Assembly: GCA_018266055.1 (NCBI GenBank)
Contig: JAFDYT010000008.1
Span: 481,357 to 545,356 of the forward strand
Direction of reading: 5' to 3'
Source: Bacteroidota bacterium
GTDB taxonomy: Bacteria; Bacteroidota; Bacteroidia; Cytophagales; Cyclobacteriaceae
DNA length: 64,000 bases
Shown: piece by piece, positions 21,974-22,864 of the stretch
How positions within the stretch are numbered: the first letter of the stretch is position 1
Layout: every line of letters begins with the position of its first letter
The notes under the pieces: generated by a model
Told to the model about the DNA's origin: nothing
The model's input: only the letters and a program-made list of their open reading frames with translations
Databases searched by the model: none
Translations under genes and position numbers: made by a program

Positions 21974-22447
21974 TTAATTGGAGAGCTTCAGTGTTCTATT
22001 CAGGCTTTCCTCCAGGGATATCATCGTTTCGGTGCGTTCTATGCCTTCTACTTGCTGCATTTTGTCGTGCAGTACTTCTTTCAGGTGGTTGGTGTCGCGG
22101 CAGTGGATTTTGAGGAACATGGAGTAGTTGCCGGTTGTATAGTGGATGTTCACGATCTCGGGAATATCCTTGAGTTTGGCCAGCACTTTTTCGTACAAAG
22201 CGCTTTTTTCGAGGTAAATTCCAATAAATGCGGTGATGTCAAAACCCAATTTATTGTAATTGATGCGCAGGGTGGTTTTATCCAGCACACCGGTTTCCTC
22301 CATTTTATTCATTCGAACATGGACCGTGCCTGGTGAAACATTTACCTTTTTGGCCACTTCAGTATAGGGGCGTTTGGCATCGTCAGTGAGCAATTCCAGG
22401 ATTTTGAGGTCGGTATTATCGAATTGGTAATTTTGGGCCATAATCAT
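21974..22447 (-). CDS. Lrp/AsnC family transcriptional regulator
   Basis: 157 residues; an alternative ATG two codons later (22441) gives MAQNYQFDNTDLKIL, the more typical family start. The N-terminal winged HTH (about 8-65) contains NTDLKILELLTDDAKRPYTEVAKKVNVSPGTVHVRM. The C-terminal RAM domain (about 70-150) has the beta-alpha-beta pattern (IVNIHYTTGNYSMFLKIHC) that binds amino acids and oligomerises. Such regulators respond to leucine, alanine, asparagine or other amino acids. Its targets cannot be read from the sequence; it sits just upstream of suf and next to the tRNA-like island. Confidence 0.92.
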   Translation of the reverse strand: MIMAQNYQFDNTDLKILELLTDDAKRPYTEVAKKVNVSPGTVHVRMNKMEETGVLDKTTLRINYNKLGFDITAFIGIYLEKSALYEKVLAKLKDIPEIVNIHYTTGNYSMFLKIHCRDTNHLKEVLHDKMQQVEGIERTETMISLEESLNRTLKLSN

Positions 22448-22564
22448 GACTTTATATTGATGATATTTTAATATAATGGCTAATGTATTAAATATATTGT
22501 AAATTTTGTGACGTATTATTGATTTAAAATCAAAATCAGTATTCCTTTGCTAAAGAATTTACAA

Positions 22565-22586
22565 TGTAGGTGCTGATCAGATCAGC
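22565..22586 (+). repeat. Degraded tRNA-like 5' fragment ending in a palindrome
   Basis: The sequence TGTAGGTGCTGA resembles the first bases of the tRNA-like gene at 22697 (TGTAGGGTGTTGA). It runs into a perfect inverted repeat GCTGATC-A-GATCAGC at 22572-22586. The similarity is short, so this copy is the least certain of the three. The stretch between the Lrp gene and this point (22448-22564) shows only A/T-rich sequence and no perfect -7 box on either strand. Confidence 0.35.
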
Positions 22587-22603
22587 GAAAAGCACTAAAA
22601 ATT

Positions 22604-22665
22604 GAAATGTTCTTAAAATATACTGTAGGGTGTTGATCCCGATAGCCATCGGGATGGCAGACATG
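22604..22665 (+). repeat. Truncated tRNA-like 5' half with a palindromic insert in the D-loop
   Basis: Positions 22604-22636 are identical over 33 nt to 22677-22709. That block covers the upstream flank, the 5' acceptor strand and the start of the D-arm of the tRNA-like gene. In this copy the D-loop then contains the hairpin ATCCCGAT-AGCC-ATCGGGAT (22636-22655), after which TGGCAGACATG (22655-22665) again matches the full copy. The sequence then diverges and has no anticodon arm, T-arm or 3' acceptor strand. It is a partial duplicate, not a functional tRNA. Confidence 0.7.
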
Positions 22666-22676
22666 AAAACGGTATA

Positions 22677-22709
22677 GAAATGTTCTTAAAATATACTGTA
22701 GGGTGTTGA
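22677..22709 (+). repeat. Second copy of the 33-nt direct repeat, leading into the full tRNA-like gene
   Basis: Identical to 22604-22636. It supplies the flank and the first 13 bases of the tRNA-like gene that starts at 22697. The repeat-to-repeat distance is 73 nt, about one tRNA length. Confidence 0.75.
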
Positions 22710-22842
22710 AACTGGCAGACATGCCCTCCTGTCTCGGGGGTGAGGAGTCAAGGATAAACGCAGGATAAAGGGTTGACCACTAAAGTTTTCTTTGTGTCCT
22801 GTAGCTAACTTCCTCGTGGAGGTTCGAACCCTCCCTCTACAG
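22697..22842 (+). tRNA. Atypical class II tRNA-like gene with anticodon GTC and a 64-nt insertion in the variable arm
   Basis: It folds as a tRNA. The acceptor is TGTAGGG (22697-22703) with CTCTACA (22835-22841), 7 bp with one G-T pair, and G is the discriminator. T8 is present. The D-arm is leucine-like (TTG AAACTGGCAGA CAT). The anticodon stem is CCCTC/GGGGG with loop CTGTCTC, so the anticodon is GTC. The T-arm is GGAGG-TTCGAAC-CCTCC. The invariant T8, A14, G18-G19, T33, G53, T54-T55-C56, A58 and C61 are all there. The variable arm closes with AGGA/TCCT but carries 64 extra nucleotides, making 146 nt in total. G73, GTC, C38 and G2-C71 are known aspartate identity elements, yet the body is class II like Leu/Ser. 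T37 is unusual, and no CCA is encoded. A strong terminator follows. It could be a functional odd tRNA, a regulatory tRNA-like RNA or a decaying gene. Confidence 0.6.
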
Positions 22843-22864
22843 CAAGTGGATTAAGTTAAGAATT

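What the first reader, a model, noticed from the sequence alone, without database searches (positions are those of the whole stretch)
22697..22842. A 146-nt class II tRNA-like gene with aspartate-type identity on a leucine-type body
The sequence keeps a paired 7-bp acceptor, D-arm, 5-bp anticodon stem, T-arm and all the invariant tRNA bases I checked. Its D-arm is Leu-like, but the anticodon is GTC inside CTGTCTC (the canonical Asp loop is CTGTCAC), the discriminator is G, and C38 and G2-C71 are also present, which are known AspRS identity elements. The variable arm closes with AGGA/TCCT but has 64 extra nucleotides at its tip. I know of no standard tRNA class with this combination. It could be a tRNA that mischarges or decodes unusually, a regulatory tRNA mimic, or a decaying gene. 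The strong terminator just downstream suggests it is expressed.
Basis: partly seen in the sequence, partly recalled or inferred. Interest (0 to 1): 0.75.

Follow-up and report, generated by a model that had tools for sequence, protein, structure and literature searches.

The report
Asparagine-linked tRNA-like RNA of Bacteroidota
The odd tRNA belongs to a conserved RNA family, missed by the standard RNA and tRNA finders used here, that sits beside an asparagine-type regulator in many Bacteroidota and looks built to carry aspartate that is turned into asparagine rather than to read the genetic code.

Summary
The 146-nt gene belongs to a structured RNA family (24 of 33 pairs change on both sides), strong in 292 of 390 order genomes (my count at E<=1e-19) and found in 44 of 392 phylum genomes. 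Rfam and ARAGORN miss it. In 140 distinct copies U1-A72, G2-C71, G73, U35 and C36 are invariant, C38 holds in 139, G34 in 129; U33 only in 93, and 37 is never a purine: AspRS determinants plus the pair GatCAB requires, on a loop unfit for decoding. An AsnC-type regulator lies divergently beside it in 103 of 134 loci and groups with E. coli AsnC. In 9 of 15 RNA-free genomes with this regulator asparagine synthetase A takes the RNA's place; in G014, AsnB. AsnB is in 0 of 51 RNA+ and 9 of 29 RNA- genomes, GatB in 51 of 51 and 22 of 29. Best explanation: a dedicated non-decoding carrier for RNA-dependent asparagine synthesis. Charging, amidation and release are inferred; AsnA was not searched.

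The parts
22697..22842 (+). tRNA-like RNA, full copy: U1-A72, G2-C71, G73, anticodon loop CTGTCTC
22742..22815 (+). extended variable arm: stem 22742-22745/22812-22815, second stem 22750-22752/22809-22811, conserved internal loop GATAAA 22753-22758 opposite CTAA 22805-22808, distal helix 22759,22761-22765/22797-22801,22804
   Evidence: covariation; columns mapped to the window by my reading of A1
22843..22843 (+). encoded C74, as in the 44 tRNA sequences ARAGORN found in the fetched stretches of this genome
22858..22897 (+). terminator-like hairpin with T run
   Evidence: inverted repeat I2; sequence
22542..22549 (+). TTCCTTTG, resembling the Bacteroidota -7 element TAnnTTTG (recalled consensus, one mismatch), 23 bases before the first remnant copy
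   Evidence: in relatives the pattern T[AT]n2-3TTTG occurs in 78 of 105 upstream regions, shuffled mean 23, maximum 37 (the window was not among the 105)
22565..22596 (+). degenerate remnant of an upstream copy (starts TGTAGG)
   Evidence: my reading
22624..22665 (+). truncated 5' copy with a CCCGATAGCCATCGGG palindrome in the D-loop
   Evidence: direct repeat D1; 10 copies with such a D-loop insert in 6 of 80 AsnC-anchored relatives
21974..22447 (-). divergent AsnC-type regulator (157 aa)

Best explanation
A dedicated, non-decoding tRNA-like carrier for RNA-dependent asparagine synthesis, next to and probably controlled by a divergent AsnC-type regulator. Proposed path: the transcript is trimmed and CCA-tailed like a tRNA; AspRS charges it with aspartate through G34 U35 C36 C38 G73 and G2-C71; GatCAB recognises U1-A72 and amidates Asp-RNA to Asn-RNA; asparagine is then released and supplies AsnRS. 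Loss of U33, a pyrimidine at 37 and the long variable arm would keep the charged RNA out of translation, where it would otherwise put Asn at Asp codons. Shown: the RNA family, its conserved determinants, its link to the regulator, GatB in each of 51 RNA+ genomes tested and AsnB in none of them. Inferred: expression, control, charging, amidation, release, and the role of the variable arm.
For: Determinants in 140 distinct copies: U1-A72 140, G2-C71 140, G73 140, U35 140, C36 140, C38 139, G34 129; the neighbours 32, 33 and 37 vary. PMC9976931 (passages) names G73, G34, U35, C36, C38 as the Asp determinants, G2-C71 as minor, and says amidation of Asp-tRNAAsn is conferred by U1-A72 and prevented in tRNAAsp by G1-C72 and U20a; the RNA reads GGCA or GGTA from G18 on in 139 of 140 copies, so no U20a. 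In this genome U1-A72 occurs in 3 of 44 tRNA sequences read (Asn, Gln, one Lys of an odd cluster), and tRNA-Asp has G1-C72. Regulator linkage: 103 of 134 loci, divergent in all (102, 116-339 bases apart; L205); by genome 92 of 107 with the full RNA (my count), including another class (L257-L259). The regulator lies in one clade (100/98) with E. coli AsnC, 42% identical to it, against 23-32% for the ten rows outside the clade; in E. coli asnC is divergent to asnA. Of 26 regulator loci, 6 adjoin the RNA and 11 an asparagine synthetase A gene. G014, of the window's genus, has AsnB there, no full RNA and no GatB. AsnB: 0 of 51 RNA+, 9 of 29 RNA-. GatB: 51 of 51, 22 of 29; the 7 genomes without GatB all lack the RNA. 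Fisher p 4e-5 and 5e-4; by genus 2e-4 each, not corrected for relatedness.
Against: No RNA, charging or growth data. G34 is replaced in 11 of 140 copies (C34 in regulator-linked f13 copies L309, L310, L311, L316; A34 or T34 elsewhere). G195 and G231 are RNA+ and also have asparagine synthetase A beside the regulator. In 15 of 107 RNA+ genomes no regulator was found in the stretch held (two are contig ends). AsnA (PF03590), asparagine synthetase A away from the regulator, AsnRS, GlnRS, GatA and GatC were not searched, so 'no asparagine synthetase' is shown only for AsnB. 22 RNA- genomes keep GatB and 20 lack AsnB, so other solutions exist and GatB alone does not predict the RNA. Bacterial tRNAAsp relies also on G1-C72, which this RNA lacks. 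A long variable arm may hinder AspRS (recalled: class II synthetases face the variable loop). No releasing enzyme was identified. The 51/29 set was chosen by me.
Confidence: 0.6

Rival explanations
1. A regulatory tRNA mimic of an AsnC regulon: it binds or is charged by AspRS (and perhaps GatCAB) as a sensor or decoy and adjusts asparagine or aspartate use, without being a biosynthetic carrier.
For: Regulator linkage and AspRS determinants fit a sensor as well; by my reading an A/U-rich tail that follows the RNA elsewhere survives without the RNA at two AsnC loci, L285 and L279 (compared).
Against: Does not by itself explain GatB in 51 of 51 RNA+ genomes, invariant U1-A72 or the exclusion of AsnB.
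Confidence: 0.22
2. A carrier of asparaginyl (or aspartyl) residues for another transfer reaction, such as modification of lipid, peptide or cell wall.
For: Charging and amidation determinants as above; a non-decoding loop suits a transfer substrate.
Against: No common transferase gene seen beside the RNA among the neighbours read by eye; the MprF-type family PF09924 is absent from this genome; exchange with asparagine synthetase genes at the AsnC locus points to free asparagine.
Confidence: 0.09
3. A serine-charged class II tRNA: SerRS recognises the long arm and G73 (PMC7609411, passages).
For: G73 and G2-C71 are invariant and the long forms have a long variable arm.
Against: SerRS does not read the anticodon (recalled), so conserved U35, C36 and C38 stay unexplained; by my reading two unpaired bases lie between variable stem and T-stem, one in the tRNA-Ser(gct) of this genome.
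Confidence: 0.05
4. A decoding tRNA, decaying gene or pseudogene.
For: Window copy keeps U33; a truncated copy and a remnant lie upstream.
Against: Order-wide conservation and covariation; position 37 is a pyrimidine in 140 of 140, U33 in only 93 of 140; ordinary Asp, Asn and Leu tRNAs exist.
Confidence: 0.02

Closest known systems
tRNA-dependent asparagine synthesis (AspRS + GatCAB on tRNAAsn; Bdellovibrio, Deinococcus; PMC4206432)
   Same: Aspartyl determinants plus U1-A72 on one RNA; GatB in all 51 RNA+ genomes tested; that survey reports Bacteroidetes among 18 genera with AsnRS, GlnRS and GatCAB and no AsnA/AsnB (passages; which genera was not seen).
   Different: The carrier here is not tRNAAsn: Asp-type GUC loop, no decoding features, 107-195 nt in the long copies read, with a structured variable arm and an AsnC-type regulator of its own beside it.
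Non-translational tRNAs such as staphylococcal tRNA-Gly for cell-wall synthesis (recalled)
   Same: A tRNA-shaped amino-acid carrier kept apart from translation.
   Different: Different amino acid, amidation step, architecture and lineage; function here is inferred.
tRNA-Sec and allo-tRNAs (PMC7609411, passages)
   Same: Long variable arm, G73; GUC is among the anticodons reported for allo-tRNAs.
   Different: Acceptor and T stems are 7 and 5 bp here, the loop is non-decoding, and nothing links it to selenocysteine.
E. coli asnC-asnA divergent pair
   Same: AsnC-type regulator divergent to an asparagine gene.
   Different: What lies beside the regulator is an RNA gene instead of an enzyme gene.
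tmRNA
   Same: tRNA-like ends with an inserted domain.
   Different: This RNA keeps an anticodon arm, and a separate tmRNA exists in the genome; a tag frame was not looked for.

Membership tests
Elongator tRNA | cloverleaf with G18-G19 and T-loop TTCGA | tested here: met
   (G18-G19 context found in 139 of 140)
Elongator tRNA | U33 and purine 37 conserved | tested here: not met
   U33 in 93 of 140, purine 37 in 0 of 140
tRNA-Asp | G34 U35 C36 C38 G73 | tested here: met
   129, 140, 140, 139 and 140 of 140; 11 copies fail at G34
tRNA-Asp | G1-C72 | tested here: not met
   U1-A72 in 140 of 140
GatCAB amidation substrate | U1-A72, no U20a | tested here: met
   criterion from PMC9976931 (passages)
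GatCAB amidation substrate | amidotransferase in the same genome | tested here: met
   GatB in 51 of 51 RNA+ genomes; GatA and GatC not searched
GatCAB amidation substrate | actual aspartylation and amidation | not testable with these tools
   needs biochemistry
tRNA-Leu | A73 discriminator | tested here: not met
   G73 in 140 of 140
tRNA-Sec / allo-tRNA | 8-bp or longer acceptor stem | tested here: not met
   7 bp; the base before position 1 varies
tmRNA | no anticodon arm | tested here: not met
   anticodon arm conserved; tmRNA found elsewhere
tmRNA | tag reading frame | not tested
   not looked for
Any Rfam 15 family | match at gathering score | tested here: not met
   (window copy); below gathering shows only scattered weak matches
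AsnC regulator (NF008384) | score over curated cut-off 227 | tested here: not met
   171 bits, still the best of 11 families
AsnC regulator | groups with E. coli AsnC apart from other Lrp-type paralogs | tested here: met
   clade 100/98 of 23 of 33 rows; two more distant f26 and f27 paralogs also fall inside it
Replacement of asparagine synthetase | RNA+ genomes lack AsnB, AsnA and asparagine synthetase A | tested here: inconclusive
   AsnB 0 of 51; AsnA not tested; G195 and G231 have asparagine synthetase A

The most novel reading that the evidence does not exclude
Many Bacteroidota make free asparagine on a dedicated RNA: a non-decoding tRNA derivative that AspRS charges and GatCAB amidates stands in for asparagine synthetase, sits in the genomic slot beside an AsnC-type regulator that an asparagine synthetase gene holds elsewhere, and is exchanged for such genes in evolution.
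Probability: 0.5. Interest if true: 0.95.

Novelty: new variant of a known kind. Interest (0 to 1): 0.88.

Why it matters
If true, an RNA replaces a metabolic enzyme gene as the specific component of amino-acid biosynthesis in most genomes of one bacterial order and in scattered families of its phylum. It could explain why some Bacteroidota with AsnRS, GlnRS and GatCAB lack the known asparagine synthetases, would correct pathway predictions, give a clean case of a tRNA that left translation, and open the question of what its conserved variable-arm domain binds. Even without the mechanism it is a large structured RNA family that Rfam and ARAGORN did not report here.

Tried and rejected
Intron or insertion in an ordinary tRNA: ARAGORN with introns up to 400 nt calls a tRNA in only 4 of 80 relatives, with four different readings. 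tmRNA: separate gene. Lipid aminoacylation by an MprF-type enzyme: PF09924 absent in this genome. Cis-regulation of fadD: the gene after the RNA differs between families while the regulator stays (by eye). ArfB as release factor: only one locus, L267. Dispersed copies showed no common partner gene by eye. The plasmid search found nothing. Literature searches (open-licence PMC only) listed no paper that I recognised as describing this RNA; apart from passages of three papers (PMC4206432, PMC7609411, PMC9976931) I saw listings only.

Weak model hits (E above 1e-19) were set aside: ordinary class II tRNAs of this genome score up to 36 bits, and two weak hits read by eye in relatives (L220, 53 bits; L221, 45 bits) are ordinary Leu-type tRNAs. 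Some f13 hits near 1e-13 may be a 76-nt short form (L263). Row L113_3152 was dropped from A1 because my pattern had cut it at a wrong T-arm; 50 of the remaining rows were used after removing near-duplicates. The first D-stem register was off by one and corrected; model R1 was built with the wrong register.

Full report
What is there. The window carries one full tRNA-like gene at 22697-22842, preceded by a truncated copy at 22624-22665 and a short remnant at 22565 (my reading), and followed by a terminator-like hairpin. ARAGORN finds only a tRNA-Thr in the window; Rfam reports nothing here at gathering score and no tRNA match at E<=10. Folding energy alone is ordinary (z -0.35).

It is conserved. 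In the genus 53 of 62 genomes match by blastn, most over nearly the whole length including the extra 64 nt, two only weakly. From loci anchored on the neighbouring regulator I extracted 83 copies in all, the window's included; 50 diverse ones gave alignment A1. Pair counting (on A1; on 71 distinct order-wide rows) shows 24 of 33 pairs with changes on both sides and 316 compensated cells against 91 in shuffles and 29-67 for slid partners. Helices: acceptor, D, anticodon, T, and three in the variable arm, the latter enclosing a conserved internal loop (GATAAA-type strand opposite CTAA). The distal part varies; total lengths are 107-195 nt in the long copies read.

Distribution. With model R1, 357 of 390 order genomes have some match; 65 of these are above E 1e-19, and those I read are ordinary class II tRNAs or a short form, leaving 292 strong ones by my count. 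With R2, 44 of 392 genomes drawn from the phylum match at 1e-12: 15 of the window's order, 25 of other families of its class, 4 of other classes. Of these, G792 is an ordinary-looking tRNA and G073 a short form; the other three of another class (f67) are real. Over 40 genomes the filters are stricter, so these are lower bounds. Copies stand in tandem in many genomes, up to six in one array.

It is not a decoding tRNA. In 140 distinct copies position 33 is T 93, G 30, A 10, C 7; position 37 is T 133, C 7. Positions 35 and 36 are U and C in all, 38 is C in 139, 34 is G in 129. G73, U1-A72 and G2-C71 are invariant. The 44 tRNA sequences read in this genome encode C74 after the discriminator, and so do the 82 kept RNA copies, which suggests ordinary 3' maturation. 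[quoted passage not shown]

What those positions mean. PMC9976931 (passages) gives G73, G34, U35, C36 and C38 as aspartate determinants, G2-C71 as minor, G1-C72 as helping in E. coli, and states that amidation of Asp-tRNAAsn depends on U1-A72 and is prevented in tRNAAsp by G1-C72 and U20a. PMC4206432 (passages) says bacterial GatCAB recognises U1-A72. The RNA thus joins aspartate loop determinants to the amidation pair. In this genome U1-A72 is otherwise in tRNA-Asn, tRNA-Gln and one tRNA-Lys of an odd cluster only.

The neighbour. Of 134 loci brought in by RNA or DNA similarity or fetched around such hits, 103 contain an AsnC/Lrp-type gene, divergent in all of them (102, 116-339 bases from the RNA; L205). 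The 134 loci come from 116 genomes; leaving out 8 genomes with only tRNA-like weak hits and one with the short form, 92 of 107 genomes have the pair (my count). The 15 others include two contig ends and members of f1, f2, f6, f19, f24 and f27; in G095 and G599 the regulator lies elsewhere. The window protein scores best against NCBIfam AsnC (171 bits, below the cut-off of 227; Lrp 51 bits). A tree puts RNA-linked regulators, synthetase-linked regulators and E. coli AsnC in one clade (100/98) apart from ten paralogs, which are 24-31% identical to the window protein against 53-64% for the regulators in question; f25 and f26 relatives at about 40% also fall in that clade. In E. coli, asnC is divergent to asnA.

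The exchange. In 31 order genomes chosen for or against the RNA, 26 have the regulator; the 5 without it all lack the RNA. Of the 26 loci, 6 adjoin the RNA, 11 asparagine synthetase A (one of these proteins was checked with NCBIfam, 320 bits over a cut-off of 309; the others are 69-84% identical to it), 9 neither. By genome: 9 of 15 RNA-free ones have asparagine synthetase A there; so do 2 of 10 RNA+ ones (G195, G231), whose RNA lies elsewhere; one has the short form only. Two of the four g118 loci were checked and lie near a beta-aspartyl-peptidase-like gene (below cut-off). In G014, of the window's own genus, the regulator adjoins AsnB (793 bits on the cut locus, cut-off 499), and full RNA and GatB are absent. 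Its regulator is 56% identical to the window's and falls with f13 and f23 regulators (98/95), while 27 other genus genomes have 76-91%, which suggests replacement of the whole unit.

Co-occurrence. In 80 genomes picked by me (51 RNA+, 29 RNA-), AsnB is in 0 and 9, GatB in 51 and 22. Fisher p 4e-5 and 5e-4, by genus 2e-4 each (41 and 16 genera, 5 in both sets); relatedness is not corrected for. AsnA, asparagine synthetase A away from the regulator, AsnRS and GlnRS were not tested.

Reading. The simplest account is a carrier for RNA-dependent asparagine synthesis: AspRS charges it, GatCAB amidates it, and the loop and long arm keep Asn-RNA from misreading Asp codons. A discriminating AspRS could then serve a cell that has AsnRS but no asparagine synthetase. 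Release of asparagine is unexplained. Against it stand the 11 copies without G34, the lack of G1-C72, a possible clash of the long arm with AspRS, and the untested enzymes. Two RNA copies of G195, which has asparagine synthetase A, carry A34, as relaxed selection would predict, but two cases prove nothing.

Expression. A T[AT]n2-3TTTG pattern lies within 80 nt upstream in 78 of 105 first copies, against a shuffled mean of 23 and maximum of 37 (block shuffle, related sequences). No RNA data were available.

Noticed in passing
window 22565-22665: Remnant and truncated copies upstream; 5' copies with a CCCGATAG-type palindrome in the D-loop recur, 10 in 6 of 80 relatives, most of them truncated.
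   Followed up: partly
L285 and L279, upstream of the AsnC-type gene: By my reading the A/U-rich tail that follows the RNA elsewhere survives although the RNA is gone (compared with 38, 48).
   Followed up: no
L263:2339-2414 (-): A 76-nt short form with the same kind of acceptor, G73 and loop CTATCTC but a short variable loop; weak hits of similar E recur in genus g36 and were not read.
   Followed up: no
L267:5628-6050 (+): An ArfB-type aminoacyl-tRNA hydrolase gene between two RNA copies; no other case in the loci held.
   Followed up: partly
L050 (own contig C18, 373-380 kb): A cluster of odd, mostly low-scoring tRNAs, possibly mobile.
   Followed up: no
L312 and L315: A beta-aspartyl-peptidase-like gene near the regulator in genus g118, where the RNA is not adjacent.
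   Followed up: partly
L268:3425-4135 (+): tRNA m7G46 methyltransferase TrmB gene right after the RNA in an f24 genome.
   Followed up: no
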